Source: a virus
DNA: 37,120 nt
Strand: one strand, 5' to 3'
IMG/VR virus record: IMGVR_UViG_3300044611_001873
Coordinates: 1 to 37,120 of that record
Each line of letters opens with the position of its first letter. Position 1 is the stretch's first letter. Under the pieces are notes generated by a model. That model ran no database searches. It was not told the DNA's origin and was given only the letters and a program-made list of their open reading frames with translations. This document shows, piece after piece, positions 883-21,751 of the stretch. Position numbers and translations under genes: made by a program.

Positions 883-939
883 TAACTGCCCTGAAATGTG
901 GCTTTTTTACAACATTAGAAATTAACAATTAAATAAGTG

Positions 940-1512
940 ATGAATAATTTAACAGTATACGAAGATTGCATCGAATTGTCAATACCCGTTGATGTTATTG
1001 ATTTAACAACATTGAATTGGGTTCGTTATAATCCTAGAAAAAAAATTGAACGATATGGTTGTAGTATTACCAGCATGGATGGCAACGACACTGGTGTTCC
1101 AGACCTGGACAGTGTACTAGAATATAATCGTGAAAATGGAACACATCTTCAGGAAAAAGACTTCGCTATTCAAACTAAACATTCATTTCCGTTTAAAGAA
1201 TTTCTAAATAGATTTACTGTAGGAAGATGTCACTATATTAAATTACCACCTGGTGGCTTTTTTCCGTGGCATAGGGATGTAGATCCGAATACTTTTAGAA
1301 TTATATATACCGTAGAACATTGTAGTCCAATCGACTTCGTTTGGTTGGAAGATGATAAAATTTTAGAATTACAGGATCAACGCTGGTATTATATTAACAC
1401 TAGAAAGAAACATGCTGTATTCAGTTTTCAAACTGCTATATTTGCTGTGTTTAATGTTTTTACAACTGAACAAAATCTTCATCAGTTAGAACAACACTTT
1501 CATATAAAATAA
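940..1512 (+). CDS. 2OG-Fe(II) dioxygenase-like phage protein
   Basis: 190 aa from the ATG at 940 (a GTG lies one codon upstream; no clear Shine-Dalgarno decides between them). In the 191-residue numbering, His112-x-Asp114 in 'PWHRDVD' and His159 in 'INTRKKHAVF' form the HxD...H iron triad of the double-stranded beta-helix oxygenases. This type is common in T4-like phages. The substrate cannot be told. It is one of two plus-strand islands, diverges from the tandem promoters and ends in a bidirectional terminator. A second HxD protein lies at 15612-16148. Confidence 0.6.
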   Translation: MNNLTVYEDCIELSIPVDVIDLTTLNWVRYNPRKKIERYGCSITSMDGNDTGVPDLDSVLEYNRENGTHLQEKDFAIQTKHSFPFKEFLNRFTVGRCHYIKLPPGGFFPWHRDVDPNTFRIIYTVEHCSPIDFVWLEDDKILELQDQRWYYINTRKKHAVFSFQTAIFAVFNVFTTEQNLHQLEQHFHIK

Positions 1513-1535
1513 AAGGACTCCGTAGAGTCCTTTTT
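1511..1535. terminator. Bidirectional terminator between 940-1512 and pqqA
   Basis: AAAAGGACTC-CGTA-GAGTCCTTTTT is a near-perfect hairpin with an A-run on one side and a T-run on the other. It serves both the rightward oxygenase gene and the leftward pqqA-like gene. Confidence 0.9.
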
Positions 1536-1552
1536 AACTGTGTGTATACTAA

Positions 1553-1624
1553 TTAACGATTAGCGATATACATAGTGATTTCAAAACCGAAACGCATATC
1601 AGTTGCTGTTGGCTTAGTCCACAT
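1553..1624 (-). CDS. pqqA: PqqA-like precursor peptide of pyrroloquinoline quinone (23 aa)
   Basis: The 23-residue peptide starts MWTKP, continues TDMRFGFE and ends ITMYIANR. It has the family length and pattern: MW.KP at the N-terminus, Glu15 and Tyr19 in an E-x3-Y spacing, and a C-terminal 'NR'. In PQQ synthesis the radical-SAM enzyme PqqE, with chaperone PqqD, crosslinks this Glu and Tyr, and the cofactor is cut out for dehydrogenases such as methanol dehydrogenase. The ATG has AAAGGA 7 nt upstream, and a bidirectional terminator follows, so it is its own strong unit. No pqqB-E genes are in the window; host enzymes would process it. It is easily missed because of its size. Confidence 0.85.
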
Positions 1625-1732
1625 AATGTTTCCTTTCAAATTAAACATACTACAATTGTATGTATCTGTATTTTACCTTAAAAAACGGTAAAAATACATA
1701 CTGATAATCATTAAAAGAATCTAAGTAAAAAT
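1625..1732 (-). promoter_or_regulatory. pqqA leader with two hairpins
   Basis: On the minus strand TTTTACC-(GTTTTTTAA)-GGTAAAA forms a hairpin without a following T-run, and CATAC-AATTGTA-GTATG forms a second one before the AAAGGA site. They may end or process the upstream transcript or stabilise the pqqA message. No consensus promoter is seen. Confidence 0.35.
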
Positions 1733-2038
1733 TTAGCTTAATTTAATTACTGTTAGTAATGCTTCGTCTCGACTCCAAAATGCCCAATACCATTTTCCAT
1801 GCGTATCACGTTCTAGAAATATTGGAGCCATCTTATATCCTGTATCTACAATTTGATTGTGACAAGTATCCCAATTACTCCAATTGATGCCGTTCTTTAG
1901 ATTAGTTTCTACTCTGTCTATAGGATTTATAATTAGGATTACTTCGGGCGGGTTATCCAAAAATCTACTACGTTGCCTATCGATTTCGTAATAGGGGATA
2001 TACTTTTCTAACCAATCATGCCAAGATACTATTTTCAT
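1733..2038 (-). CDS. Conserved-looking protein of unknown function (101 aa)
   Basis: A soluble, Trp-rich protein (WHDWLEKYIPYYEIDR near the start, 'KWYWAFWSRDEALL' near the end). Its start overlaps the end of the DUF3501 gene by 23 nt, so the two are likely translationally coupled and it may belong to the rubrerythrin-DUF3501 unit. No family recognised. Confidence 0.65.
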   Translation of the reverse strand: MKIVSWHDWLEKYIPYYEIDRQRSRFLDNPPEVILIINPIDRVETNLKNGINWSNWDTCHNQIVDTGYKMAPIFLERDTHGKWYWAFWSRDEALLTVIKLS

Positions 2039-2612
2039 TAAAATCCTTGACTAACATTTCCTTAGTCAAAGTATTTACTCTAGTGTACTCATTATAGGTA
2101 GGGTGGTCAACTCCTACAGTAAACGCAGTATCTGAATCACACATGTCTTTGATCATTTCTGGTGTTAGTTCAAAACGTAAAAAATGTACAGCAGCAGTTT
2201 TAGTATCGTTTGAACGATCCATATCTTCATCCGCAATAGCATACACTGGTTGATGTCCTTCTACTTTGATATAGATTTTATCTTCTACACGATGTAATTC
2301 TTCTAATTTAGCCGCACGTATTTCTGGATTGCTATACTCTATAGTCAAAGTCGCTTTTAGATTAGTACCAGTAGGTATGAGAGGATTATATGCATCTAAT
2401 TCATCCTGAATACCTTCAGAGGTAAATGTTTTTTCAATTAGCAGCATTTCTTGTATTTGATATTTGACAGTTACACGATCCTCGAAATGTAAGGTCATAT
2501 GATTACCTAATTGTACCTGTCGATGCTTACGATGGTTTACTGCTATACGTTTAAAGTCGTTACGGATTCGACTGTATTCTTCTAATGAGTGTAAATCACT
2601 GTGTGTTAACAT
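2016..2612 (-). CDS. DUF3501 family protein
   Basis: 198 aa. The sequence follows the DUF3501 pattern closely: 'LEEYSRIRNDFKR', 'FEDRVTVKYQIQEMLLIEKTF', 'QDELDAYNPLIP', 'VYAIADEDMDR', 'AVHFLRFELTPEMI', 'GVDHPTYNEY'. In proteobacteria this uncharacterised family is typically encoded next to rubrerythrin and an Fe-S oxidoreductase, suggesting a role in peroxide or redox defence. Here it is directly downstream of rubrerythrin, separated by a terminator hairpin and an AAGGA site. The Fe-S oxidoreductase partner is absent from the window. Full length. Confidence 0.88.
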   Translation of the reverse strand: MLTHSDLHSLEEYSRIRNDFKRIAVNHRKHRQVQLGNHMTLHFEDRVTVKYQIQEMLLIEKTFTSEGIQDELDAYNPLIPTGTNLKATLTIEYSNPEIRAAKLEELHRVEDKIYIKVEGHQPVYAIADEDMDRSNDTKTAAVHFLRFELTPEMIKDMCDSDTAFTVGVDHPTYNEYTRVNTLTKEMLVKDFNENSILA

Positions 2613-2665: not shown

Positions 2666-3103
2666 TTAAGCGTTGTCTGCTTTGTAAGCGTCAAGAGTTT
2701 TCTGAAACTTACCAGCGTGGCTACGTTCTGCTTTAGCAAGAGTATCGAACCAGTCAGCAATTTCATCAAAGCCTTCTTCACGTGCATCACGTGCCATACC
2801 AGGGTACATATCAGTATACTCGTGTGTTTCGCCATGAATAGCACTTTCAAGAGCTTGTACAATATCTTTAGCTGGTAATCCAGTTTCTGGATCGCCGCTG
2901 CCACCTTCGATCAAATATTCCATATGACCATGAGCATGGCCTGTTTCACCTTCTGCGGTATGACGGAAGATGTTGGCTACATCAGTAGCACCTGCAATGT
3001 CAGCCATGTTTGCGAAATACAAATAACGACGGTTAGCTTTTGATTCTCCTGCGAATGCATCCTTTAAATGCTGTTCGGTTTTAGTTCCTACTAGTTTTTC
3101 CAT
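2666..3103 (-). CDS. Rubrerythrin-type diiron protein without rubredoxin domain
   Basis: 145 aa, a ferritin-like four-helix bundle. Diiron motifs are visible at '[12 protein letters not shown]', '[12 protein letters not shown]', '[14 protein letters not shown]' and '[11 protein letters not shown]'. The usual C-terminal CxxC rubredoxin domain is missing, so electrons must come from another donor. Rubrerythrins reduce hydrogen peroxide. It has a strong AAGGAG, its own sigma70-like promoter and a terminator, and is followed by DUF3501 as in bacterial operons. Confidence 0.9.
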
Positions 3104-3883: not shown

Positions 3884-4104
3884 TTTTTATCCTTGTTTAC
3901 AAATTTTTCCGAAGCAGTAAATCCTAACCCGCCTAATACTATGTACACAATAGCATCAAACATTTGCGTACTTACTTTTAATTGAAAAAATAACTCTGCA
4001 AAGAATCCTACTACAATTAAAAGAAAAGCCAAAAATGTAATGACTCTCTTACTACTTAGATTTTGTTCGCCTTCACCTGAAAGCATTTTAATTATGAAAT
4101 TCAT
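3880..4104 (-). CDS. Small two-TM protein, putative holin
   Basis: 74 aa with two hydrophobic segments (about 22-42, ITFLAFLLIVVGFFAEL, and 49-66, FDAIVYIVLGGLGFTA) and charged ends (KRV; KFVNKDKK), the layout of small phage holins. Good AAAGGAG site. It sits in an apparent operon with exported phage proteins and a coiled-coil membrane protein. The SleB-like hydrolase is far away at 28222, so the lysis assignment rests on topology only. Confidence 0.5.
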   Translation of the reverse strand: MNFIIKMLSGEGEQNLSSKRVITFLAFLLIVVGFFAELFFQLKVSTQMFDAIVYIVLGGLGFTASEKFVNKDKK

Positions 4105-4113
4105 ACTGCTCCT

Positions 4114-6120
4114 TTAATTTCCTATGTTATACTGTTGTTCAATCATCATTTGATGTAGAACGTCGCTCTTGCCGTTTAAGAAACGCTCGGCTCTTGCGTT
4201 ATCTACTGTTCGTTGACCCTTATATATTTCCTTAGGTGCGTAAAATTGTCCGTCACGCATACCATTCATATATAATTCAAAACCTTGAGGCGTTTGTGCT
4301 ATAGCGGCAATATCGACATTGCCAGCAGCCTGATTAGGTTGTACATTTTTATTTACAGAACTTCCTGAAGTTTCTTTACTAGTAGTTTCTGGTAGTCGAG
4401 GTTGTAAATTATTTTGAATATTATTAGTAGGTCCAAATACACTAAAGTTTGCACCACTTGGATCCTCGTTCTTATTCTGCTGCTGTTCTGAATTTTGTCT
4501 ACTTGAATTAGTTGTTATACTTAGAGCAGATGACACAGTGGCAGCTAATGCTATACTCTGACTTTGTTCTTGTGTTTTACTAACTAAATCTCCTACTAAT
4601 GCATCTTGATTAGCACGAGTTTGCAATGCTGCTGTTTCATTTTTTTGCAGAATATCTCTTACAATACTTTGTTCTCTTTCTGCATTACGTCTTACAGTAT
4701 TAAGAGCAGTCGTTAATGCATTAGGATTTACTTCTCTTTTTTCTCTTTCTTGTGTCTGACTTTGATTATTAGCTGTAGATACTGCTTCACGGCTTACAGT
4801 AGGAATTCCGTCTGGAGCTGTAATAGTTCCGGTAGTAGTTAGTTCTACACCTCCAGCATTTTGTACTGTAGGGTCTGTTCTTGTACTATCGGGTGCAAGT
4901 GCTATACTAGTATAACCTGAACTTGTATTGTAAGTCACTGTAGGTATACTAGTAGAAGAACTACTTGTTGCTATTGAAGCAGCATAAGCTGCATTATATC
5001 CTGGACAAGTTGGACTGCTTAAAGGATTAATAATACATTGATCTGGAGTATACAGTATAGTAGCCCACATATTGCTTATGCCGGCGTTGTCTGCTGCATA
5101 TCCTGTAAAATTAAAATTACCTAATGTGCCTAACGTCTTACTAGTAGGAAATCTATATTGGTAACTAAAGTCCGTAGGATTAATATCAGAATGTGTTCTG
5201 GTTATGCTATATAAACTTTGTCCGGTGTTTGACGTAATGTTTACGTTTATCTGTGCATACGGATCTCTATTATCGAAACAAAATATTGCCCAAAAAGCGC
5301 AGTATGGTCCTCCACTGTTAGCACGATAACCATAATTAAAACCGTGAACTAGTAATCCAGTACCTCCTTGAGCTAATGCTGTCTGTATAGCAAAACTATT
5401 ATCAATAAAAGCATTCCAACTGACTGCTGCGGTAGGATTAGGTACCTGGTTAGTAGTTTCTAATACTGAACTAAATCCTGAACAGCTGGTACTATAGGCA
5501 GGATTAGTAGCACAAGGATCTACGCCATAGTTTAGACTAAGTCCAACATTACGTACTTGTGGTCCATAGTAACCTGCCCAGAAACCGCCGTCTTTGCCGC
5601 TAAATGTAATACTTAAATTACCACTAGATGCTAATGCCGAAGCAGACGTTAGTGTACGTGAACCACTAAATGTAGTCCAATCAAATTGTGTATTGTAGGT
5701 ATTGATAACTTGATCTAATGTACTACCTGTGTTGTTGGTCATCCTAACAGTGGCAGTTAATGTGTCTGTACCGGCCTGTCCTCCTGCCCAACCGTTCATA
5801 TTTCTAATATCATATGTATAGTTGTAACCAGTAACTGTAATTCCACTACCTGAATTAGCCAAAGCAGATTGTATTCCTATGCTTTGACTTACATTAGCCT
5901 GTCCATAGCTAAAGTGTATTGTTCCTGTACTGTTTTCATAAAGAGCACCTGCTCCTCCAGTACAGCAATTGTAAGGATGACTACCGTAGGTAACTCCTGA
6001 CCAACTGTTATTGTTGATCAGGTTACCTGTAGTATAGTCTACCTGTGCATTAGAGACCGAACAGTGCAAAGACAGCAGCGCCAATAAGAGCGCCGAAGCC
6101 CAATTTCTTATATGTATCAT
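4114..6120 (-). CDS. Large exported phage protein with a duplicated Cys-motif domain
   Basis: 668 aa. A clear signal peptide (LLLALLSLHCSVSNA, cleavage near 25) supports this start although the gene begins inside the upstream gene. Two tandem beta-rich domains (about 27-205 and 210-370) each end in a similar Cys motif: 'DPCATNPAYSTSCSGF' and 'DQCIINPLSSPTCPGYN'. The C-terminal half is Asn/Gln/Ser-rich with a helical stretch ('ALNTVRRNAEREQSIVRDIL') and a compact end domain ('GFELYMNGMRDGQFYAPKEIYKGQ'). It is probably secreted to the periplasm or assembled on the virion. Function unknown. Confidence 0.75.
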   Translation of the reverse strand: MIHIRNWASALLLALLSLHCSVSNAQVDYTTGNLINNNSWSGVTYGSHPYNCCTGGAGALYENSTGTIHFSYGQANVSQSIGIQSALANSGSGITVTGYNYTYDIRNMNGWAGGQAGTDTLTATVRMTNNTGSTLDQVINTYNTQFDWTTFSGSRTLTSASALASSGNLSITFSGKDGGFWAGYYGPQVRNVGLSLNYGVDPCATNPAYSTSCSGFSSVLETTNQVPNPTAAVSWNAFIDNSFAIQTALAQGGTGLLVHGFNYGYRANSGGPYCAFWAIFCFDNRDPYAQINVNITSNTGQSLYSITRTHSDINPTDFSYQYRFPTSKTLGTLGNFNFTGYAADNAGISNMWATILYTPDQCIINPLSSPTCPGYNAAYAASIATSSSSTSIPTVTYNTSSGYTSIALAPDSTRTDPTVQNAGGVELTTTGTITAPDGIPTVSREAVSTANNQSQTQEREKREVNPNALTTALNTVRRNAEREQSIVRDILQKNETAALQTRANQDALVGDLVSKTQEQSQSIALAATVSSALSITTNSSRQNSEQQQNKNEDPSGANFSVFGPTNNIQNNLQPRLPETTSKETSGSSVNKNVQPNQAAGNVDIAAIAQTPQGFELYMNGMRDGQFYAPKEIYKGQRTVDNARAERFLNGKSDVLHQMMIEQQYNIGN

Positions 6121-6952
6121 CTGATTTTACCACTTCTACTTTAGGAATCTTATTAGGATTTTGTTCCCATAATTCTCTTGCCGCATCACCAATTTTTCCA
6201 TCATATGGACAAGGTGTGCCTGCACTCCACATTGCATCGAACACACGACGATCCTGACACATTGTTGCCACAGCAGCAACCTTCATTCCCATATCGTAAA
6301 GTGTTTTGCTTAACTTTAATCTTTCACAATTCATATCACGAACAGTTCCACCAGAACTAATACCTAATATTTGTGTTTGTAATGCTCCGCTGGTTCCTGT
6401 GGTACAAAGGTCATTATTACCTCCGCTCATCATTGCTGGTGCAATTGCTGTAGGAGGAGGTTGTATAACTTTCTGTGTAATGGTACTATCGTTGATATTA
6501 CGATTAGTCATATCACCAGTATTGATATTATTATTAGTATTAACATTAGTATTGTTTAAGCCACCACTTTGTACATTACGATTGGTCATATCACCAGTGT
6601 TGATATTACGATTGGTCATATCACCAGTATTAACATTTGTATTAGTGTTAGTACTAGTAGTAGTGTTCACATTATTATTATTAAAAGTTTGAGTACCGCT
6701 GTTTACGTTATAGTTTGTGTTAGTGTTTGTACTAGTACTGGTATTATTGTTATTATTGGTATTTGTACTTGTACTGTTTACGTCTGTGGTGTTTACATTT
6801 GTGCTGGTACTCGTACTGGTACTATTAGAATTAACTGTACTAGTACTTGTACTTGTGCTATTTGTATCTACTAAACTGCTACTGTCATATGTTTGGGCAT
6901 AGGTGTTTGCCATAAATGCCCATATTGTTATTGTTATAATTTGCTTCTTCAT
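6050..6952 (-). CDS. Exported Asn/Ser/Thr-repeat protein with C-terminal TM
   Basis: 300 aa. Signal peptide (MKKQIITITIWAFMANTYA), then about 140 residues almost only N, T, S, V, including near-identical 'NINTGDMTNRN' repeats. A folded domain with four Cys follows (about 182-250, 'DMNCERLKLSKTLYDMG', 'CQDRRVFDAMWSAGTPCPYDG') and finally a membrane helix (FGALIGAAVFALFGL). GGGAG lies 10 nt before the ATG and TTAAATA lies at 6983-6977. The last 71 nt also encode the signal peptide of the next gene in another frame. It looks like a flexible stalk or spacer between a membrane anchor and a small domain. Function unknown. Confidence 0.75.
   Translation of the reverse strand: MKKQIITITIWAFMANTYAQTYDSSSLVDTNSTSTSTSTVNSNSTSTSTSTNVNTTDVNSTSTNTNNNNNTSTSTNTNTNYNVNSGTQTFNNNNVNTTTSTNTNTNVNTGDMTNRNINTGDMTNRNVQSGGLNNTNVNTNNNINTGDMTNRNINDSTITQKVIQPPPTAIAPAMMSGGNNDLCTTGTSGALQTQILGISSGGTVRDMNCERLKLSKTLYDMGMKVAAVATMCQDRRVFDAMWSAGTPCPYDGKIGDAARELWEQNPNKIPKVEVVKSDDTYKKLGFGALIGAAVFALFGL
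6500..6640 (-). repeat. In-frame ~30-bp direct repeats coding NINTGDMTNRN
   Basis: At least three near-identical copies of 'attggtcatatcaccagt' with flanks, with spacing that keeps the reading frame. They encode the T-G-D-M-T-N-R-N peptide repeat inside the stalk of the 6050-6952 gene. Likely a length-variable coding tandem repeat. Confidence 0.8.
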
Positions 6953-7023
6953 AGTTGATTCGCTCCCAACTTATTATATTTAATAGGTAGTTCTCAAATA
7001 TTGTATATGTGTATAATCGTAAA

Positions 7024-7044
7024 AAAAGACCCAGAGGGTCTTTT
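7024..7044 (-). terminator. Terminator downstream of the porin gene
   Basis: The minus strand reads AAAGACCC-TCTG-GGTCTTT followed by more T. Two further small hairpins (GCGGG..CCCGC near 7047-7065, and GCACA..TGTGC near 7067-7083) precede it in the 3' UTR. Confidence 0.85.
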
Positions 7045-7088
7045 ATGCGGGTTACGAGTTCCCGCAGCACTCTATATGTGTGCTCGAT

Positions 7089-8498
7089 TTAGAAGTTTAG
7101 CTGACTACGGAACATTACTGCTCTGTCGCCATTTACTCGACTACCTGAACTGCCTACTAAACTATCAAATTTAGTATCAACGTAGTTCAACATAAAGCGA
7201 AGATTATCAGTTGCAAACCAAGTTAGACCATAGGTCATTGCTGTAGCACGATTGGTTTTACCAGTAGCAACAGCGATGTCACCGGCATCAAACTCACTCA
7301 TACGCACACCAACTTGCCATGCACCACGACCACCTTTATCTAAAGCATTTGCTGGCTTGATTGAACTAAATGCACCATCTTTGTAGTTAAATGATTCACC
7401 AGTTAGATTGTACACGGCTTGTACATAGTAACCTTTAATTTCTTGATTGCTACCTGTGGTAGGATCATATTTGAAATTAAAATATTCACTCTGTACTTTA
7501 AAGGCATTGTAAGCGATAGCCGCTTCCAGACCTTGGCGTGTGCGTTCAGTCACACCACTTAGAGCAGTACCTGTGAAGAACGCATTAGCTGAACGAGATT
7601 CTGTTCTACCACTTGCAGGAGTTACTCCGCCTTTGATTTCTCCGGTACTATAAGCTGCACCTAAGTGAGCAATGTATGCCTTACTACCTTGCAATTCAGC
7701 GATGTTGGTGGTAACACGACCGATGTAATCAAAGCCATCGGATACTGCGTCTTTGTTGGCACGACCACGACTTGCTGCAACGGCATAGGTTAAACCAGCC
7801 TTAGGCACACCATGTATCATAAAACCAGTTTCTTTACCAGGAATAAATTCCCCCTCTACTTGACCAACTAGGCTACGTTCCATGAAGTCAATGTTATTAG
7901 AACTAGTTAACTGTTCAAGACTGAACGGCATTTTAAATAAACCAAATTGGTATTGTAGTTCTGGGTTGGCTGCATAGTTTACCCAGGCCACATCCATCGT
8001 AGTCGATGTTGAAGACATTCCTACATCGTTACCGAAGTTACCAGAAAATTCATATTTGAAATCCTTTTGGAATTGTCCACGTACACCAAATCTAGCACGA
8101 CGAACTTCTGCTAAGTTCTGATACGAATCTGTGGTTTGACCTGTACCGTAATCTGGGGAGTACTGACGATAGTCCATGTGTAATCGACCTGTAACCTGCA
8201 AGGTATTGTTTCCATCCTTGCTTTTAAGTCCGACTCCGTTTTCTGTAACTGATCCGTCGTTGGCTCTTGCAAATCTGTAGTTAAAGTTTTCACGGAGGTC
8301 TTTGTCAATTCTTTGTTCCGCGAACTTTTTGTTTTCTGATCGTTCTTCGTATGCTTGGATTTTAGCATTATATTCCTTTTGTGTTAAGATACCCTTATCG
8401 CGAAGAATATTAAGTGTGTCAATGTATTCGTCTGCCTGTGCCGCACCAAAACAAAATGTCAAAGCGATGGCAAGACTTAATTTTTTTAAGTTTTTCAT
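7089..8498 (-). CDS. Phosphate-selective porin O/P (OprP/OprO) family
   Basis: 469 aa from the ATG at 8498, chosen because it has AAGGACACAG upstream and begins a clean signal peptide (MKNLKKLSLAIALTFCFGAAQA). A longer reading frame runs into pstS and is not used. After a short coiled N-terminus come repeated amphipathic beta strands ('LQVTGRLHMDYRQYS', 'VRRARFGVRGQFQKDFKYEF', 'QYQFGLFKMPFSLEQ') ending in Phe (RSQLNF), as in outer-membrane barrels. The family forms trimeric phosphate/anion channels. It is directly downstream of pstS (10 nt) and so under the same Pho-box promoter. Confidence 0.88.
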   Translation of the reverse strand: MKNLKKLSLAIALTFCFGAAQADEYIDTLNILRDKGILTQKEYNAKIQAYEERSENKKFAEQRIDKDLRENFNYRFARANDGSVTENGVGLKSKDGNNTLQVTGRLHMDYRQYSPDYGTGQTTDSYQNLAEVRRARFGVRGQFQKDFKYEFSGNFGNDVGMSSTSTTMDVAWVNYAANPELQYQFGLFKMPFSLEQLTSSNNIDFMERSLVGQVEGEFIPGKETGFMIHGVPKAGLTYAVAASRGRANKDAVSDGFDYIGRVTTNIAELQGSKAYIAHLGAAYSTGEIKGGVTPASGRTESRSANAFFTGTALSGVTERTRQGLEAAIAYNAFKVQSEYFNFKYDPTTGSNQEIKGYYVQAVYNLTGESFNYKDGAFSSIKPANALDKGGRGAWQVGVRMSEFDAGDIAVATGKTNRATAMTYGLTWFATDNLRFMLNYVDTKFDSLVGSSGSRVNGDRAVMFRSQLNF

Positions 8499-8508
8499 GT
8501 CTGTGTCC

Positions 8509-9534
8509 TTATTTCCAAATTGGGTTATTGTCTGGGCCACGGAACTCCTTCTTCCAATTTTCCTGAACAAGTTTGATTACATCAGCTGGCATGTGAACAT
8601 ATTCTAAGTCTGCTGCCATTTGACCGCCATTTTTATATGACCAGTCGAAGAATTTGAGAACTGCACGACCTGTCAGTGTGTCTGCTTGTTGCTTGTGCAT
8701 GATAATAAAACTAGCACCTGTGGCTGGCCAAGCATCTTTACCTGTTTGCCAAGTTAGCAACAAATACATGCCAGGAGCATTTGCCCAATCTGCATTGGCT
8801 GTTGCTGCTTTGAATGTGCCATCATCTGGCAATACAAAGTTACCATCACGGTTTTTTAATGCAGCATAAGGAATCTTGTTTCTCTTTGCAAATGCGTATT
8901 CGACATATCCAAATGCACCTTTGATACGTTGCACTTGTGCGGCAACACCTTCGTTACCTTTGCCTCCTACGCCTACTGGCCACTTAACAGCTGATCCTTC
9001 GCCAACACCTTTAGCAAAATCAGCATTGGCTTTGCTTAAGAAGTTAGTCCAGATAAATGTAGTGCCGGAACCATCTGCACGATGAATTACCACGATAGGA
9101 ATAGCAGGCAGACTGATGCCTGGATTTAAATCTGCGATTGCTTTATCATTCCATTTATTGATTTTGCCAAGATGAATGTTAGCAATGATGTCTGGTGTGA
9201 GTTTGAGTTGTCCTGGTGCAATACCGTCTAGATTGAACACTGGTACAACACCACCTATGATAGCCGGGAATTGCACAAGACCTTCTTTGTCCAATTCTTC
9301 TTTTTTCAACGGCATGTCACTGGCACCGAAGTCAACTGTCTTGGCCTTGATTTGACGAATACCGCCACCACTGCCAATTGATTGATAGTTTAGACCAATA
9401 CCAGTTTGAGCTTTATAGGCTTCTGCCCACTTAGCGTAAATTGGGAATGGGAATGTAGCACCTGCTCCAGTAAATTCTGCTGCTGATGCTAACGAGGATA
9501 CTGCTAGTAAAACGGTTGCGATTAAATTTCGCAT
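8509..9534 (-). CDS. pstS: PstS, periplasmic phosphate-binding protein
   Basis: 341 aa. Signal peptide to about residue 18, then 'FTGAGATFPFPIYAKW', 'NYQSIGSGGGIRQI', 'DFGASDMPL', 'HRADGSGTTFIWTNFL', which are the phosphate-binding PstS signatures. Delivers phosphate to the host PstCAB transporter; no pstCAB is present here. First gene of a two-gene unit with the porin, so a matched outer-membrane and periplasmic uptake pair. The leader carries a Pho box, a GAAGC-AGAGTC-GCTTC hairpin and AGGAG. pstS is a known auxiliary metabolic gene of marine phages. Confidence 0.96.
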   Translation of the reverse strand: MRNLIATVLLAVSSLASAAEFTGAGATFPFPIYAKWAEAYKAQTGIGLNYQSIGSGGGIRQIKAKTVDFGASDMPLKKEELDKEGLVQFPAIIGGVVPVFNLDGIAPGQLKLTPDIIANIHLGKINKWNDKAIADLNPGISLPAIPIVVIHRADGSGTTFIWTNFLSKANADFAKGVGEGSAVKWPVGVGGKGNEGVAAQVQRIKGAFGYVEYAFAKRNKIPYAALKNRDGNFVLPDDGTFKAATANADWANAPGMYLLLTWQTGKDAWPATGASFIIMHKQQADTLTGRAVLKFFDWSYKNGGQMAADLEYVHMPADVIKLVQENWKKEFRGPDNNPIWK

Positions 9535-11990: not shown

Positions 11991-13478
11991 TCACTTATCG
12001 TAGTTCAATTTGTTAATTACGTACTTTTTTAAGTATTCGTATACTCCTGGTTGTTTCCAAAAGTCCGAATCTCGATTGGCATAACCGATAGTAGTTTCTC
12101 TAGTGTCTATCCATTTTTTATTAGCTGCTTCTTCAAATGAAAGATCGTTAATTAATTGTTGTTCGCCTATTAACCAATTGCTTACTAAAGATTCAGACTT
12201 ATGACAAAGCGGGTGATTAATAACGATGTCATATGCTTCCTTAAAACTTGTTCCTGTTTCGTAATTTACCCAGTCTATAATATCGTCTACATCATTATCT
12301 TCTTTTAAATTTGTATATCCGTATTTTTCATAAGCTTCTGAAATTGCATTAGAATCTTTACCTATTAATTTATTTCTATTAAAAATATTTAAAGGAAAAA
12401 ATGCCGGTGAACAATATTTTAAATTTTCTCTAATCCATTTAATTCCACTCAAAAAGCTATCAAAAGTTTCATAAGGTAACCCGCAAATAAAAGATGTTCT
12501 ACATCTATAGAAACTTCTTTCAGAAAAATATTTTTCTATATCTAATAAACCTTGCTTGACTTTATCAGGATGCATACCTTTTTTAATTGCCTTACCGCTT
12601 TTATGATTAAATGTCTCGATTCCGTATGTATGACTTACATAACCCATGGCAATCATATCTTCCCAAGTCTCGGGATGACTTATCATTAAGTCTACTCTTG
12701 TAAAGGCAGTAATCCAAGGTTTAAATTTAATTTGTTGTTGTGTAGCTTCTGCTAGTAATTTAAGTTTTTCAGGATTCACATTAGCTGTACTATCTGCACT
12801 GAAAAAAGTAGTTACGCCAAAATTATCATAGAGATAATTCATATTATCTACATAATTTTGTACTTCTCTAAAGTTATCTCCTTTAACTCCTAAAGGTTGA
12901 TATCCGCAAAAGTCGCACATGAACTTACATCCTCTACTCCATTCAATACCTAATTGTTCTTGAGGTTGAATGAAATCTCTATCTTCATATCTTAAAGTTA
13001 GATCTTTCATAAAAATTGAAGGATAATCATAGGTTGCTCTGACAAGTTTTCCTTTTCCAAATAATGTATATTTCAATCTTTCTGTATTAGTACCAAGTAT
13101 ATTTTTTATCACTTCTAGCATAGCATGTTCTCCATATCCTTCTATATAATAGTCGGCTGGCATAGATACTTGTGTAATTTTTTGACCGCCTGTGATAATT
13201 TTTACTCTAGGATATTCTTTCTTCAACCATGTTGTAAGTTCAGAAAAATCAAGATTATGTACAGTACCCCATGTATCACTAAATCCTAAAAAAACAGTGT
13301 CTTTGTTTATTCGAGTTTTAACAATTTTAGTAATATATTCAACTGGTATTAACCCGGCATAATCGATGACTTCTACATCCCAATCTTGCTGTCTCAAAAA
13401 ACTGGCAATTTTGTGAGCACCAAGATTTCGTGTTATGTATACAGTTTGTATGCTTATGATTACTGCATGATTCATCAT
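11991..13478 (-). CDS. B12-binding-domain-like radical SAM enzyme A
   Basis: 495 aa. N-terminal Rossmann-like domain (1-130; 'RNLGAHKIASFLRQQDWDV', 'VKIITGGQ') of the cobalamin-binding type, but without the DxHxxG cobalamin ligand motif. It is followed by a radical-SAM core with C184-x3-C188-x2-C191 ('CKFMCDFC'), 'TFFSADSTANVN' and 'YGIETFNHKSG'. AAAGGATA precedes the start. It is the downstream partner of a paralogue only 6 nt away. The pair follows the tmRNA terminator. Substrate unknown. Confidence 0.82.
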   Translation of the reverse strand: MMNHAVIISIQTVYITRNLGAHKIASFLRQQDWDVEVIDYAGLIPVEYITKIVKTRINKDTVFLGFSDTWGTVHNLDFSELTTWLKKEYPRVKIITGGQKITQVSMPADYYIEGYGEHAMLEVIKNILGTNTERLKYTLFGKGKLVRATYDYPSIFMKDLTLRYEDRDFIQPQEQLGIEWSRGCKFMCDFCGYQPLGVKGDNFREVQNYVDNMNYLYDNFGVTTFFSADSTANVNPEKLKLLAEATQQQIKFKPWITAFTRVDLMISHPETWEDMIAMGYVSHTYGIETFNHKSGKAIKKGMHPDKVKQGLLDIEKYFSERSFYRCRTSFICGLPYETFDSFLSGIKWIRENLKYCSPAFFPLNIFNRNKLIGKDSNAISEAYEKYGYTNLKEDNDVDDIIDWVNYETGTSFKEAYDIVINHPLCHKSESLVSNWLIGEQQLINDLSFEEAANKKWIDTRETTIGYANRDSDFWKQPGVYEYLKKYVINKLNYDK

Positions 13479-13484
13479 TATCCT

Positions 13485-14912
13485 TTATGCTTTTGATTTT
13501 AGTAGTAATTTATACTCTTCAAACAATTTTTGTTCTAAATCATATAAATCGCCTGTTAAAGCAATAATATCTTTTATTTTATGATTAACAATCTGTTCTA
13601 TTTTAAGTCCTGCTGTAGTATATGCACCTAAACTAAATCCAAACGGTCGTTCATGTACTTTAAATTCTCTATTAAGTTCACATGTTAATTGAAAAGCCTC
13701 TAAATAAGTATATTCACCCCATTTCCAAAAAAAAGGTTCAGAATCATCTGGCCATTCTATTTTTAAATTTTTAGCATTATCTTCCCAAGTACTTTGATAA
13801 CTTTCAGATCCTTTTATCATAACTAATGGTTTCCAGGTAAAAAATCCAATTTCTGATTTTGAAAACCATTCGCCTGTTTCAAAATGATGTTCTCTAGATA
13901 CACCTGGTAATCCTCCTATGAGACTACAATCAATGTGTACTTTTTGCCATTTTTCTCTTAGTTCCAATAAAAAGTCTTTGCCTCTTCTTCCACTCCAAGG
14001 TTTTAAAACTAATTTAGATGCTTCAGGATGAAAAGTTTCCATGCCTAATAATGTAGCTCTAAGACCTGACTCTTGTAAAAGATCTATAGTATGAGGATGT
14101 TTATCTAATAAATCCGGCCTATTGTATGAAATAAATTCTAATTTAAATGGCAGTTGTTGACTAACTTTGTGTAATGTTTCTAATCGTTCGTTATCTGCAT
14201 TAAAAGTTTCATCTAAAAAATAATAGCTAGTTGTCCCGTATCGTTCATACATCTCTGTTAGGACATCAACCATCAAGCTACCATCTTTTTCATTTGTACC
14301 TGCTTTTTTTCCTAAATTTGGATATTTACAGAAAGGACATTTAAAAATACATCCTCTTCCCCATTCTAAAGGAACTGTTTCATTAGGTAATAAGCAATCA
14401 TGATCTTTAAAAATAAATCTATGATGATTAAAGTCAAATTTATTTCTTTTTAATCTTGTGCCTATTTTTTTGTTTGACAACTCATCTAATAAATTTAGTA
14501 ACCAATCTTCTCCCCAATCAATAACACATTTAAAGTCAAAAACTTCCATACCTTGCATATCATGGTAACCTCGATGACCACCTACTGCGGTTTTAATTTT
14601 AGGAAATTCTTTTTTAATTTCTTTTAAGGCATTGTATATATTATCAGGAACACTTCTTGCATGGACGTTCATCATTAACTCAGAACGATAAGTTGACCAC
14701 ATATTACTGCTTGCACCTATTAATATAGTGTCATCGTCTACGAACATCTTTGTATATTCGTATAATTCCTGAGGATCAAATAGGTGTGTAAATTCTATTA
14801 CTTGGCAAGTATAGCCATTTTCTTCAATCCATCTGGCCAACAAATAGCAACCTATCGTTCTCCAAACTAAGGGTCTATAACCTAATTGATTATATAAAAT
14901 AACATTTGCCAT
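13485..14912 (-). CDS. B12-binding-domain-like radical SAM enzyme B
   Basis: 475 aa, same architecture as its neighbour: N-terminal Rossmann-like domain without DxHxxG, then C188-x3-C192-x2-C195 ('CIFKCPFC'), 'YYFLDETFNADNERL' and 'ATLLGMETFHPEAS'. The C-terminal third differs, ending in a charged helical tail. No strong Shine-Dalgarno; TATAAGTA lies a few bases before the ATG and after the tmRNA terminator. It probably acts with enzyme A on the same or sequential substrates, perhaps a peptide or lipid. This is inference. Confidence 0.82.
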   Translation of the reverse strand: MANVILYNQLGYRPLVWRTIGCYLLARWIEENGYTCQVIEFTHLFDPQELYEYTKMFVDDDTILIGASSNMWSTYRSELMMNVHARSVPDNIYNALKEIKKEFPKIKTAVGGHRGYHDMQGMEVFDFKCVIDWGEDWLLNLLDELSNKKIGTRLKRNKFDFNHHRFIFKDHDCLLPNETVPLEWGRGCIFKCPFCKYPNLGKKAGTNEKDGSLMVDVLTEMYERYGTTSYYFLDETFNADNERLETLHKVSQQLPFKLEFISYNRPDLLDKHPHTIDLLQESGLRATLLGMETFHPEASKLVLKPWSGRRGKDFLLELREKWQKVHIDCSLIGGLPGVSREHHFETGEWFSKSEIGFFTWKPLVMIKGSESYQSTWEDNAKNLKIEWPDDSEPFFWKWGEYTYLEAFQLTCELNREFKVHERPFGFSLGAYTTAGLKIEQIVNHKIKDIIALTGDLYDLEQKLFEEYKLLLKSKA

Positions 14913-14931
14913 TTACGTACTTATAGAAATT

Positions 14932-14953
14932 AAAAGGCACCGAAGTGCCTTTT
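14932..14953 (-). terminator. tmRNA terminator
   Basis: Minus-strand AAAAGGCAC-TTCG-GTGCCTTTT is a UUCG tetraloop stem with T-run, a few bases after the tmRNA 3' hairpin and just before the radical-SAM operon. Confidence 0.9.
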
Positions 14954-14955
14954 AG

Positions 14956-15345
14956 ACTATTTTTGGTAACAAGGCATAGTTGCCCCGAAGTTCTGCTGTT
15001 TCTTAAGCAGCTAAAGCAAAAGCTTCATCGTTAGCGGCTACGCTAACTGGGCTTTGCCAGAACTTGAATGTAGATACGTTTGCATCTATAGTTTTGCTTG
15101 ATTTACGGTCATCGCCTACCGTGTTGTCCATATCCTTACTCATTACCCTGTCGAAACCAAATTCAGGCCCATCAGAATAAATCACAATTTCGTTCTTTTT
15201 CTTTGTCCAAAGTTTTATCACGAGCAATATATACTGCTCCAAACACTACTAACGATAAGATAAAAATATAATATATCATAATTTATTTTGGTGGACCTGC
15301 CCGGGGTCGAACCGGGGTCCAGAATACCTTTCATTCAACTTCATA
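14956..15345 (-). ncRNA. ssrA: Circularly permuted (two-piece) tmRNA
   Basis: The coding piece starts at 15170 with GGGCCTG then AATTTGGTTTCGACAGG, a typical tmRNA 5' end. Its tag reading frame (15035-15003) encodes ANDEAFALAA and a TAA stop, and a GGCA-ACTA-TGCC hairpin follows. The 3' tRNA-like half lies upstream, not downstream: T-arm CCCGG-TTCGACC-CCGGG, acceptor CAGGTCC, A73 and CCA (15289). Acceptor GGGCCTG/CAGGTCC pairs over 7 bp with the G3-U70 alanine identity pair, and CAGGGTA/TATTCTG forms the P2 helix. The halves are separated by a 118-nt intervening segment (15171-15288). Rescues stalled ribosomes with SmpB. The 5' end of the acceptor piece is approximate. Confidence 0.93.
15172..15279 (-). 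CDS. Possible 35-aa membrane peptide inside the tmRNA intervening segment
   Basis: Starts MIYYIFILSLVVFGAVYIAR and ends in a charged tail (DKTLDKEKERNCDLF). One membrane helix followed by positive charges. The ORF runs from 10 nt after the acceptor CCA to 2 nt before the 5' G of the coding piece, filling the segment almost exactly. There is no Shine-Dalgarno. It may be a real peptide or chance in AT-rich DNA. Confidence 0.4.
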   Translation of the reverse strand: MIYYIFILSLVVFGAVYIARDKTLDKEKERNCDLF

Positions 15346-15480
15346 CAACAATTCTTTTAACTTTTGAACATACTTTTGACACTCACCGCATTGATGATCT
15401 ACTTGCATTATACGTTCTATTAGATCTTCTTGTCTACTAAAATCGGATTCTTTTATATTGCGACAAATACAAATTATCAT
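15331..15480 (-). CDS. Bfd-like [2Fe-2S] mini-ferredoxin (49 aa)
   Basis: Starts MIICICRNIKESDF and has 'QCGECQKYVQ' at 30-39, giving the C4-x-C6 ... C31-x2-C34 pattern of the bacterioferritin-associated ferredoxin (BFD-like [2Fe-2S]) family, at a similar compact size. Bfd reduces bacterioferritin to release iron, and related domains act as electron or cluster carriers. The ATG follows the preceding gene's stop by 1 nt. Its stop codon abuts the tmRNA acceptor piece, so its 3' end may be part of the tmRNA precursor. No bacterioferritin is in the window. Confidence 0.72.
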   Translation of the reverse strand: MIICICRNIKESDFSRQEDLIERIMQVDHQCGECQKYVQKLKELLYEVE

Positions 15481-19673: not shown

Positions 19674-20354
19674 TTAGCGTATTTCAGGGAACAAGCAGTC
19701 CTGTATAAAAACACGCACATCTTCTTCATCGAGCCCTAAACTAGCCATAACTTTGGGTGTATGCGGGTTTTGTTTTTGATTTTCGCAGTAATAGTTCTGA
19801 TTAGGTATAGTGTTTTTATGTGTAAAATTAGATTCGGCTACACAATTCAGATAGTGTCTTATACTACGATTTGCGATATCAAATATCTGATTTAGTTCAT
19901 TCTCGTCTTGAACGTTGCCCGCAGCTATCATACTACCAGTAAAAATACGCTCTGCCCAATCTGGTAATTTTCTAGTTTTATTCCACCGTAATTTGGCCGC
20001 TTCAGCAGAGAACCAATCTATTAAGGGATGTTCGTGATCGCCTGCTGGACTGAAATCGTGAAAACAACCGGTAATTTTGTTCTTACCGGCTATTACATCA
20101 AATCCATATATTGGAGCAGGATTATGGATATGTGGAAAAACACAGCAATGCATCATCCAAAGACCTTTTGTTTCTCTGGCATCAACGACATCTATGTGTG
20201 CTCTGCGATAACGTTCGCCACTCCATACGCGATTAACCCAACCAGGCTGGTTAAAACGATCCATGCCAGGCTCATGTATTTCTCTGCCGGTTTCATTAAA
20301 TTTGTCTTCTAGTAAATTCTGTATGCCAATTAGTGTATTCCAAACATCACTCAT
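19674..20354 (-). CDS. pcyX: Ferredoxin-dependent bilin reductase (PcyX/PcyA-like)
   Basis: 226 aa. FDBR family signatures: 'HIDVVDARETKG', 'WMMHCCVFPHIHNPAPIYGFDVIAG' and 'CFHDFSPAGDHEHP', with Asp86 and Asp100 at conserved family positions. The enzyme reduces biliverdin IX-alpha to a phytobilin with ferredoxin electrons. It overlaps the heme oxygenase gene by 8 nt, giving a heme to biliverdin to bilin cassette. Outside cyanophages, such cassettes are known from viral PcyX, which makes phycoerythrobilin. PcyX versus PcyA product cannot be settled by eye. Confidence 0.86.
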   Translation of the reverse strand: MSDVWNTLIGIQNLLEDKFNETGREIHEPGMDRFNQPGWVNRVWSGERYRRAHIDVVDARETKGLWMMHCCVFPHIHNPAPIYGFDVIAGKNKITGCFHDFSPAGDHEHPLIDWFSAEAAKLRWNKTRKLPDWAERIFTGSMIAAGNVQDENELNQIFDIANRSIRHYLNCVAESNFTHKNTIPNQNYYCENQKQNPHTPKVMASLGLDEEDVRVFIQDCLFPEIR

Positions 20355-20889
20355 CTTTTACCAAAGCTTTCATAATTTTAATTGCCCATTGAAAAGCAAC
20401 TTTGGCTTCGTCGCCTAAGTCATCTGTTAACTCTGCTCTTATAGCAGTTTTCAAATTTTCAGCATCTTTGAATTGATAAAAGCGGCCTTGGCCTGGACAT
20501 TTTTTAGCAATAATTTGTCCGCCAAATAAATCACCCATATGACGACAATACAAGTGTGCTTTAACTAAATGACGTCTTTCAGTGTCATAGTTAAGAGCTA
20601 GTACATATTGATAATATTCAATAGTTTCTGGCAACCACTTAAGATTATGATTATTACCTACTAGTTCGATACAGTCTTGATAGATTTTGTGTGCTCGTTC
20701 AATGTCAGGTAAGTTTTTTAACATACCTTGACTATTTGCCGAAGTTTCTATTCCGTTATAAACGAGAACCATTTGCCAAAGATAGTTAGCATATTCTTCT
20801 TTAGTAAATGATCCTGTTACAAGTTTTTTAGCAAATATAGTTCTTTCTGCGTCTGCATGTAACTCTTTGGTTATTTCACGTAAACTCAT
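20347..20889 (-). CDS. ho1: Heme oxygenase (HO-1 type)
   Basis: 180 aa, shorter than plant/cyanobacterial forms (about 240). Proximal heme ligand His11 ('ITKELHADAE') and the distal helix 'YCRHMGDLFGGQII' (G119-D-x2-GG) are present. Opens heme to biliverdin, CO and Fe2+ using ferredoxin. Its start overlaps the clpS stop (ATGA) and its stop overlaps the bilin reductase start. Confidence 0.92.
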   Translation of the reverse strand: MSLREITKELHADAERTIFAKKLVTGSFTKEEYANYLWQMVLVYNGIETSANSQGMLKNLPDIERAHKIYQDCIELVGNNHNLKWLPETIEYYQYVLALNYDTERRHLVKAHLYCRHMGDLFGGQIIAKKCPGQGRFYQFKDAENLKTAIRAELTDDLGDEAKVAFQWAIKIMKALVKDE

Positions 20890-21191
20890 TCTTCTTCCAT
20901 TTTAACTTGGAGTGGGAATCCTTGTGATCTAGCAACTGTGGTTACTTCGACAGCTTTGGCTTCTGCTATGTCGAATGTATAAACACCTGCAATACCACTA
21001 CCACTATTATGTATCTCCATAGTGATCTCTTTTGCAGTTTCTTGGCTATGTTTAAAAACTTCTGTTAATACTTCTATAACGAAATCCATCGGAGTGTAAT
21101 CGTCGTTTAGAAATATGACTTTCCACTTTTTCGGTTCTTGATATTTTTGTTTAATTTTTTCGTCGATTTTTACATCAGAATCTACTGCCAT
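20886..21191 (-). CDS. clpS: ClpS, adaptor of the ClpAP protease
   Basis: 101 aa from the ATG at 21191, preferred because GGAGG lies just before it and partly inside an earlier in-frame ATG at 21203. Core motifs 'WKVIFLNDDYTPMDFVIEVL' and 'AKEITMEIHNSGSGIAG' are typical. ClpS delivers N-degron substrates to ClpA and blocks ClpAP from ssrA-tagged proteins, notable because this phage also carries tmRNA. No clpA or clpP is here. Follows the hsp20 terminator; translationally coupled to heme oxygenase. Confidence 0.93.
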   Translation of the reverse strand: MAVDSDVKIDEKIKQKYQEPKKWKVIFLNDDYTPMDFVIEVLTEVFKHSQETAKEITMEIHNSGSGIAGVYTFDIAEAKAVEVTTVARSQGFPLQVKMEEE

Positions 21192-21210
21192 CACTGCCTC
21201 CATAAAAATT

Positions 21211-21233
21211 AGGGGAAAGTTAAACTTTCCCCT
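21211..21233 (-). terminator. Terminator between hsp20 and clpS
   Basis: AGGGGAAAGTT and AACTTTCCCCT form an 11-bp stem with a 1-nt centre (3-nt loop in practice), followed on the minus strand by AATTTTT. The clpS ribosome site is just beyond. Confidence 0.85.
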
Positions 21234-21240
21234 TATTATA

Positions 21241-21690
21241 TTACTTAACTTCTACAATGTCAATTACTCGAGCTTTCTTTTCTTCTGGAATAATATATTC
21301 AAGGCTAATAGTTAAGATTCCGTCTTTAATCTCGGCTCCATTTACAACCATATGTTCTGCTAGTTGCCAACTTCTTACAAAACTTCTGCTACTTAAACCT
21401 CGGTGTAGGTATTGTCTAGTTAAAGTTTCGTTAGTTGCTTCTGATTCTCCCCTCACTGTTAGCATGTCTTGTTCAACTTCAACATTTATCTCATGTTTTT
21501 TGAAACCAGCAACTGCTATTTCAATTTGATAATGTGTGTCGTCAGTTTTAACAATATTATGCGGAGGATAGTTAGTAGATAACTGATTTGCAAATCTTGA
21601 TTCGAAAGTATCGAACAATCTGTCAAATCCTACTAAAGCTTTGTTTAATGCTGTTGTATCAAAACGTGCTACTGTACCATTCATTGTCAT
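21241..21690 (-). CDS. hsp20: Hsp20 / alpha-crystallin small heat-shock protein (IbpA-like)
   Basis: 149 aa from the ATG at 21690, which has AAGGAG upstream; the longer frame would start inside that site. The alpha-crystallin domain has 'YQIEIAVAGFKKHEINVEVE', 'LTVRGE', 'YLHRGLSSRSFVRSWQLAEHM' and 'AEIKDGILTISLEY', as in IbpA/B. It holds unfolded proteins for DnaK, which is encoded just upstream. The 5' UTR carries the SD-sequestering hairpin described separately. Confidence 0.93.
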   Translation of the reverse strand: MTMNGTVARFDTTALNKALVGFDRLFDTFESRFANQLSTNYPPHNIVKTDDTHYQIEIAVAGFKKHEINVEVEQDMLTVRGESEATNETLTRQYLHRGLSSRSFVRSWQLAEHMVVNGAEIKDGILTISLEYIIPEEKKARVIDIVEVK

Positions 21691-21697
21691 TTGATTT

Positions 21698-21746
21698 CTC
21701 CTTAAATTAAGCAAGATACAATATTTGACCCAAAGGCGTCAAATAT
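21698..21746 (-). promoter_or_regulatory. ROSE-like RNA thermometer of hsp20
   Basis: Minus strand: CTTGCTT-AATTT-AAGGAG (21715-21698) folds so that CUU(G)CUU pairs with AAGGAG around a bulged G, the hallmark UUGCU/AGGA core of ROSE thermometers. Upstream ATATTTGAC...GTCAAATAT (21746-21721) forms a stable 9-bp hairpin, as in ROSE leaders. Confidence 0.65.
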
Positions 21747-21751
21747 AAGTC

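What the first reader, a model, noticed from the sequence alone, without database searches (positions are those of the whole stretch)
1553..1624. Phage-borne pqqA: a 23-codon gene for the PQQ precursor peptide
The minus strand encodes a peptide with the length, MW.KP start, E15-x3-Y19 core and NR end of PqqA. It has its own SD and a bidirectional terminator but no other pqq gene nearby. Known chemistry: PqqE/PqqD crosslink the Glu and Tyr. Inference: the phage raises substrate supply to the host PQQ pathway to sustain methanol or alcohol dehydrogenase during infection. It points to a PQQ-dependent, probably methylotrophic host and is missed by standard gene calling.
Basis: partly seen in the sequence, partly recalled or inferred. 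Interest (0 to 1): 0.92.

Follow-up and report, generated by a model that had tools for sequence, protein, structure and literature searches.

The report
Phage gene for PQQ precursor peptide
This virus of bacteria carries a tiny gene for the peptide from which its host makes the redox cofactor PQQ, and many other viruses of water bacteria carry the same easily overlooked gene, often behind a control region that seems to serve this gene alone.

Summary
Window 1553-1624 (minus strand) encodes [23 protein letters not shown], a PqqA over the Pfam and NCBIfam cut-offs. With position 19 left free, Glu15 and Tyr19 were kept in 126 of 126 peptides. PqqD was found in 0 of 44 phage records, PqqB in 0 of 45, PqqE over its cut-off in 0 of 44.

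New here: window-type genes have their own cassette (promoter box, -10, start-site stem-loop, SD, ORF, terminator). A scan of IMG/VR for box plus -10 alone gave 54 matches; 49 precede PqqA within 190 nt.

Best reading: the phage supplies only the consumed substrate of the host's PQQ pathway. Phage pqqA itself is in print (PMC7678222). 'Probably methylotrophic host' is not supported here: the peptide's end fits ITMYIA[NT]R, found in 21 of 27 other-Burkholderiales and 0 of 56 Methylophilaceae peptides. Expression and function are untested.

The parts
1553..1624 (-). pqqA, 23 codons, [23 protein letters not shown]
   Evidence: conserved in kin that have it
1697..1712 (-). upstream promoter box AATGATTATCAGTATG, ending 21 nt before the -10
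   Evidence: consensus of 52 non-redundant upstream regions; the strict core TCASTATG is in 25 of 52; box plus -10 precedes PqqA in 49 of 54 matches in IMG/VR
1670..1675 (-). -10-like hexamer TAAAAT (perfect TATAAT in 46 of 73 relatives)
   Evidence: the window copy has one mismatch to TATAAT
1645..1663 (-). palindrome ACATAC-AATTGTA-GTATGT at the predicted transcript start; predicted 5'-terminal stem-loop
   Evidence: 1 match in window, 0.05 expected; fold; a copy at pqqA in each of the 8 of 11 large records that have it
1631..1635 (-). Shine-Dalgarno-like AAGGA
   Evidence: read directly
1511..1534 (-). intrinsic-terminator-like hairpin after pqqA, between it and the convergent gene
   Evidence: folds
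937..1512 (+). convergent neighbour (191 aa, no family match); 64% identical in syntenic kin
1733..2038 (-). upstream neighbour (101 aa, no family match); 82% identical in syntenic kin
2016..2612 (-). DUF3501 protein, used to find relatives of this phage

Best explanation
The gene encodes a genuine PqqA, the peptide whose Glu15 and Tyr19 are joined by the host's PqqE and PqqD and turned into PQQ. It does so from a free-standing short unit: an upstream box, a -10, a transcript predicted to begin at a stem-loop, an SD, 23 codons and a terminator, giving a mRNA of about 155 nt. The likely benefit is to keep PQQ-dependent alcohol or methanol dehydrogenases supplied for respiration while host gene expression is shut down. 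Shown by sequence: identity of the peptide, its conservation, its occurrence without PqqB/D/E in the records searched, and a cassette found almost only at pqqA. Inferred: transcription from that start, stabilisation by the hairpin, processing by host enzymes, and benefit to the phage.
For: PqqA family cut-offs passed. Nine isolate records and one metagenome-derived phage genome carry it; the six fetched belong to different groups (Zobellviridae, Kyanoviridae, others unplaced) and have different genes beside pqqA, so it is not binning contamination. E15 and Y19 in 126 of 126 peptides from a pattern that left position 19 open and fixed only the middle base of codon 15. A scan using no coding sequence gave 54 matches: 49 precede a peptide recognised as PqqA, and a 50th (L503), which my PqqA expression did not recognise, is a variant that keeps both residues. 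pN/pS 0.18 in kin. PqqD in 0 of 44 and PqqB in 0 of 45 phage records; PqqE 3 of 44 weak partial matches, none over cut-off. Hosts do alike: 1-12 pqqA copies in 16 Methylophilaceae-named genomes; PMC4109929 (passages) reports 3-12 pqqA copies against typically single copies of the other pqq genes, with one exception; PMC3615186 (passages) lists pqqA transcripts of 11857 and 13927 against 166 and 161 for pqqE in a methanotroph. Cassette.
Against: No transcript or protein was seen. Kin can lack it: 9 of 18 DUF3501-related records have no pqqA, including one of 191,865 bp whose DUF3501 is 74% identical, so it is dispensable or some records are incomplete. A methanol-dehydrogenase-family gene was found in only 1 of 44 pqqA-bearing records. 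The host of this phage, and whether PqqA limits its PQQ supply, are unknown. PMC9851590 (passages) notes only a limited PQQ rise after overexpressing pqqABCDE in a methylotroph.
Confidence: 0.74

Rival explanations
1. Neutral passenger: a host pqqA copy picked up by chance, with no role in infection.
For: Host pqqA is often multicopy, so easily captured; 9 of 18 kin records lack it. By folding energy host leaders are as structured as viral ones.
Against: pN/pS 0.18 in kin; presence in isolate phages of different groups; a promoter and leader found almost only at pqqA, with perfect leader stems enriched in viral but not host pqqA.
Confidence: 0.08
2. The peptide acts on the host pathway otherwise than as substrate: a decoy that occupies PqqD/PqqE or a protease, or a signal that represses or activates pqq or dehydrogenase genes.
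For: The gene is without PqqB, PqqD or PqqE in the records searched, and its promoter looks specially controlled.
Against: A decoy would not need the two residues that become PQQ, yet E15 and Y19 are kept in all 126 peptides, and in variants where neighbouring positions changed (Thr17 to Ser in L424, L429, L471; L503).
Confidence: 0.09
3. The functional product is the short structured RNA (hairpins at both ends), with the peptide secondary.
For: The 160-nt unit folds better than 200 shuffles (z -3.4); conserved leader stem-loop.
Against: Codon-level conservation with synonymous drift (window against a kin, 5.5 synonymous differences at 14 sites, 2.5 nonsynonymous at 52); leaders of other phages with near-identical peptides differ in sequence.
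Confidence: 0.04
4. Mis-binned or misread sequence: a bacterial fragment or a chance ORF.
For: Two 'Acinetobacter phage MD-2021a' records match; the one inspected carries pqqB, pqqC, pqqD and a radical-SAM gene among bacterial genes.
Against: Isolate genomes carry it; synteny with a 364,554-bp contig that has T4-like baseplate genes.
Confidence: 0.01

Closest known systems
Lake Baikal T4-like methylophage population VP_266 (PMC7678222, section 9 read)
   Same: A T4-like freshwater phage sequence carrying pqqA, proposed to support PQQ-dependent methanol oxidation; GC 35% (window 36%).
   Different: Reported as carrying methanol dehydrogenase too and assigned to Methylophilaceae; the window record has no such dehydrogenase (it may be a fragment) and its PqqA is of the type of other Burkholderiales. 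No promoter or leader is described in the section read. The paper says P19250A had none of the reported genes, but an unannotated pqqA lies there.
Extra pqqA copies of Methylophilaceae (PMC4109929 passages)
   Same: Several 23-codon pqqA genes per genome beyond the single set of other pqq genes; the same substrate-dosage logic.
   Different: Chromosomal; the loose palindrome expression hit 2 of 129 host upstreams against 23 of 173 viral ones, which include repeats, and host leaders show no excess of perfect stems (28 of 118 against 31 and 23 further upstream).
PqqA family (PF08042, TIGR02107)
   Same: Length, MW.KP start, E15-x3-Y19 core, family scores.
   Different: Carried by a phage, without PqqB, PqqD or PqqE in the records searched.
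Phage auxiliary metabolic genes such as psbA, pstS or hsp20 (recalled)
   Same: Host-type gene kept by phages to steer metabolism in infection.
   Different: Supplies a consumed precursor peptide of a cofactor, not an enzyme, transporter or chaperone.

Membership tests
PqqA (PQQ precursor peptide) | Match above curated cut-offs | tested here: met
   40.8 bits vs 21.1, and 41.6 vs 20
PqqA (PQQ precursor peptide) | Glu and Tyr three residues apart (E15-x3-Y19), later joined into PQQ | tested here: met
   kept in 126 of 126
PqqA (PQQ precursor peptide) | Crosslinked by PqqE with PqqD and converted to PQQ | not testable with these tools
   needs peptide and enzymes
PqqA (PQQ precursor peptide) | Next to pqqBCDE (usual, not required: host genomes hold extra copies) | tested here: not met
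   PqqD 0 of 44, PqqB 0 of 45; PqqE 3 of 44 weak matches, none over cut-off; PqqC not searched
Phage auxiliary metabolic gene | Lies in a true phage genome | tested here: met
   isolates; window kin with baseplate genes
Phage auxiliary metabolic gene | Homologue of a host metabolic gene | tested here: met
Phage auxiliary metabolic gene | Kept by selection | tested here: met
   pN/pS 0.18 over 7 distinct kin genes (21 pairs); but 9 of 18 kin records lack it
Phage auxiliary metabolic gene | Expressed and useful during infection | not testable with these tools
   no transcriptome or infection data held
Methylophage (phage of a methylotroph) | Host is a methylotroph | tested here: inconclusive
   ITMYIA[NT]R end in 21 of 27 other-Burkholderiales peptides, 0 of 56 Methylophilaceae; DnaK tree leaves the window on a long branch; porin closest to unnamed G242

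The most novel reading that the evidence does not exclude
Many large T4-like freshwater phages share a control cassette used for pqqA and almost nothing else: an activator-type box, a -10 and a stem-loop at the start of the transcript. With it they drive the host's PQQ pathway by supplying only the consumed substrate, and this extends to hosts that are not methylotrophs. Lone pqqA would then be one of the commonest, and most overlooked, metabolic genes of phages of PQQ-using bacteria.
Probability: 0.6. Interest if true: 0.78.

Novelty: new variant of a known kind. Interest (0 to 1): 0.7.

Why it matters
PQQ is the cofactor of the dehydrogenases by which aquatic methylotrophs and many other proteobacteria oxidise methanol and other alcohols. 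A phage that carries only the consumed precursor peptide would reveal which step it finds limiting and would tie viral infection to one-carbon turnover in lakes and seas. Cultured phage-host pairs with the gene exist (Venkman, MEP301/401/402, Melnitz, P19250A), so the idea can be tested directly. The gene is easily missed because it is 23 codons long; a promoter-plus-peptide pattern finds it.

Tried and rejected
PHROGs has no family for the peptide. The sigma-70 consensus scan found no promoter; the promoter emerged only from comparison of relatives. DnaK as a host marker was indecisive: none of the first 13 of 39 genomes is Methylophilaceae-named (10 are Burkholderiales-named, one Thauera, two not named to order), but the bit-score gap is small and in the tree the window sits on a long branch. 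Peptide type as a host marker is imperfect: Melnitz, whose listed host is Methylophilales H5P1, ends in IMTR rather than the Methylophilaceae type, and the promoter cassette occurs with both VMNR and IANR peptides. The window's radical-SAM ORFs as a maturase for this peptide: considered and rejected, since in NCBIfam they match other families, all below cut-off, and not PqqE. Whether every Methylophilales phage in the collection has pqqA could not be decided: taxonomy lists further names and I could not tell which are held; a paper search for MEP431 gave nothing. PqqC was not searched.

Dropped rows: H11 and H12; H11 is a bacterial contig, H12 was dropped by organism name without inspection. 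Near-duplicate upstream sequences were collapsed to 139 viral and 122 host, 137 and 118, 52 of 77; the counts are not de-duplicated. Control starts are mechanical ORFs, some surely not genes. The host sample required Met10 and RFGFE, which biases it, and about half of its 27 Burkholderiales loci are Paraburkholderia, Caballeronia or other Burkholderia. In one search the 47 'no PqqA' loci include at least five pqqA genes cut by contig ends and three Ser17 variants, so the contrast there is understated. The strict box core TCASTATG is present in only 25 of 52 cassette upstreams, and 34 of the 49 PqqA-preceding box matches have the ACATAC-type stem by my expression: box and stem are not always found together.

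Full report
What is there. On the minus strand, window 1624-1553 encodes [23 protein letters not shown]. It matches Pfam PF08042 at 40.8 bits against a cut-off of 21.1, and the NCBIfam equivalog TIGR02107 at 41.6 against 20. It is the only such match in the record. A terminator-like hairpin closes the unit at 1534-1511, and the next gene downstream is convergent (937-1512). The window is a whole IMG/VR record of 37,120 bases, with tRNA-Asp, tRNA-Trp and a tmRNA.

Relatives of this phage. A scan with the neighbouring DUF3501 protein gave 18 related loci, on contigs up to 364,554 bp. Of the 18 records, 9 hold pqqA (two of them near-identical to the window, two near-identical to each other) and 9 do not, one of the latter 191,865 bp long with a 74% identical DUF3501. 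In the 364,554-bp record and its 165,799-bp near-copy the order 191-aa gene, pqqA, 101-aa gene, DUF3501, rubrerythrin, 207-aa, 668-aa and 300-aa genes, porin, PstS is kept, with proteins 61-98% identical; the longer one has baseplate hub and wedge proteins. Among seven distinct kin pqqA genes mean pS is 0.67 and pN 0.12, ratio 0.18.

Other phages. A tblastn search of 50,697 phage records gave 12 with a match. One of the two 'Acinetobacter phage' records is a bacterial contig with pqqB, pqqC, pqqD and a radical-SAM gene; both were dropped. The other ten are nine isolate records (Venkman, MEP301, MEP401, MEP402, P19250A, four Melnitz) and one genome from Manatee Spring. None of the six that I fetched annotates PqqA: four have no feature there, and in two a different ORF is called on the opposite strand. 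The Lake Baikal paper says that P19250A had none of its reported genes (PMC7678222, section 9), yet a 23-codon pqqA lies at 28085-28153 (-) there.

IMG/VR. A second pattern left position 19 free and fixed only the middle base of codons 15 and 17; it gave 120 contigs (limit), and with the window and five named phage records 126 peptides, all with E15, T17 and Y19 and all 23 aa. Of 44 phage records searched whole (the window, six named genomes, and the 37 IMG/VR contigs of 20 kb or more among the pattern hits), none has PqqD; 3 have weak partial PqqE-model matches, none over cut-off (that model also matches in all 14 control genomes below cut-off); none of 45 has PqqB. One of 44 carries a PQQ-dependent alcohol dehydrogenase.

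A cassette that belongs to pqqA. Upstream of pqqA, most window-type phages share ACATAC-loop-GTATGT or a variant. It occurs once in the window against 0.05 expected, and in 8 of 11 large related records, each time with a copy at pqqA; only the 364,554-bp record has two further copies, while the reversed control pattern occurs once in each of three records. The three records without it have pqqA too; two of them show a variant stem, one has none. A scan for this element followed by a short W-x-x-P pattern stopped at 120 loci: 73 have a full PqqA behind it, with perfect TATAAT in 46 of 73, GAT directly before the element in 64 of 73 and a seventh T-A pair, not required by the pattern, in 61 of 73; the other 47 loci show 5, 7 and 5, and at least eight of those 47 are truncated or variant pqqA genes. 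The majority consensus of 52 non-redundant upstream regions reads TTTAATGATtTTCAgTATg, about 21 nt, TATAAT, then the element; the strict core TCASTATG is in 25 of 52. PqqA follows within 190 nt in 49, of which 34 have the ACATAC-type stem by my expression; one more match precedes a PqqA variant with E15 and Y19, one is cut by the contig end, and three look, by eye, like chance or coding sequence. The matches were not de-duplicated; the spacer is 21 in 41 of 54. So this promoter is, as far as the collection shows, a pqqA promoter. The window copy has TAAAAT for TATAAT and otherwise conforms, spacer 21.

Reading the anatomy. The -10 lies 12 to 7 nt before the element, so transcription should start at the base of the stem: a 5'-terminal hairpin of the kind known (recalled) to protect bacterial mRNA. 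Loop length varies from 4 to 14, and two relatives show paired changes in the stem (L302, L313), which favours an RNA hairpin over a fixed-spacing operator; this is inference, and single leaders of this set fold only modestly better than shuffles (z -0.2 to -4.6). Leaders of other phage pqqA genes differ in sequence but are also rich in stems: perfect stems of 6 or more in 71 of 137 viral leaders against 41 and 24 in two bins further upstream; host leaders show 28, 31 and 23 of 118. By folding energy alone, however, host leaders resemble viral ones (mean z -0.83 against -0.90, controls -0.20), so the contrast with hosts rests on the stem count and on TATAAT (perfect in 30% of viral, 1% of host, 4% of control upstreams).

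How it most likely works. PqqA is consumed one for one while PqqB-E are catalysts (established pathway). Hosts treat it so: 16 Methylophilaceae-named genomes hold 1-12 copies and five Methylophaga-group genomes 3-9, while 9 of 12 Burkholderiales-named genomes hold one and the other three 2-3. PMC4109929 reports 3-12 pqqA copies against typically single copies of the rest, with one exception, and PMC3615186 lists pqqA transcripts about 70-87 times those of pqqE (passages). A phage that adds pqqA alone acts where the host itself adds copies. Retention of both chemically used residues argues for substrate and against decoy. That the peptide is processed, that PQQ rises and that the phage gains are inferences.

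Host. Peptides ending ITMYIA[NT]R make up 21 of 27 from other Burkholderiales (the window's exact ITMYIANR, 8 of 27), 0 of 56 from Methylophilaceae and 0 of 22 from the Methylophaga group; none of the six named phage peptides, five of them from phages with a Methylophilales host, ends so. Over 22 positions the window peptide matches Thauera at 20 and Hydrogenophaga at 19, and no Methylophilaceae-named peptide above 17. DnaK of the phage does not settle the matter. I put a non-methylotrophic Burkholderiales host at about two in three.

Prior art. In the searched library, pqqA or PQQ with phage, viral or auxiliary-gene terms led to the Lake Baikal paper and a 2026 reservoir paper that lists pqqA, pqqE and pqqD among viral genes (PMC13188868, passages); a third paper notes a PqqA-annotated peptide family of bacteria co-expressed with defence systems (PMC11118758, passage). 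In the Melnitz, MEP401/402 and Venkman papers a find for PQQ terms showed no mention of a phage pqqA (passages). I found no report of the promoter cassette in these searches, which did not aim at promoters as such. Phage pqqA is therefore known; its breadth in isolates, its solitude, and the dedicated cassette appear new.

None of these required a change of odds.

Noticed in passing
L358 (G052, 72,356-bp IMG/VR record): 3989-5863, 5943-8783, pqqA near 11889: One record combines a PQQ-dependent methanol/ethanol-family dehydrogenase (over cut-off), a formate dehydrogenase alpha subunit (over cut-off) and pqqA, with ribonucleotide reductase, GroEL-like and DNA ligase genes elsewhere in it: a possible viral methanol-oxidation set.
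   Followed up: partly
KX815270.1 28085-28153 (-), L006: Unannotated pqqA in P19250A, the cultured LD28 phage that the Lake Baikal paper says lacks such genes.
   Followed up: yes
L008 (CAKLQF020000010.1): Record labelled 'Acinetobacter phage MD-2021a' carries pqqB, pqqC, pqqD, a radical-SAM gene and siderophore genes; it looks like a bacterial contig filed among phages.
   Followed up: partly
window 11991-14912: Two adjacent radical-SAM proteins (one B12-binding), distantly like PhpK/BchE/HpnJ but below all NCBIfam cut-offs; role unknown.
   Followed up: partly
window 2666-3103, 7089-9534, 20347-23629, 29712-30408, 32692-37118: Rich metabolic load: rubrerythrin, phosphate porin, phosphate-binding protein, heme oxygenase, ClpS-like, Hsp20-like, DnaK-like, IscA- and IscU-like, tryptophan-halogenase-like protein, superoxide dismutase, ribonucleotide reductase (ClpS, Hsp20, DnaK, IscU and NrdA named only from reading the translations).
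   Followed up: no
window 14912-15381: tmRNA gene whose predicted tag is unusually long (26 aa, ending ANDEAFALAA); may be a mis-set tag start.
   Followed up: no
L353 (G242) 4973-7409: In the genome with the porin closest to the phage's, pqqA is followed by a TonB receptor related to the PQQ importer PqqU (546 bits, below the cut-off of 1200).
   Followed up: no
L012, L020, L022, L028, L035, L046, L054, L062: Virus contigs with a different PqqA type (RLGFE[VI]TMYF...), suggesting further host groups.
   Followed up: no
L424, L429, L471: PqqA variants with Ser for Thr17 behind the same cassette, E15 and Y19 intact.
   Followed up: partly
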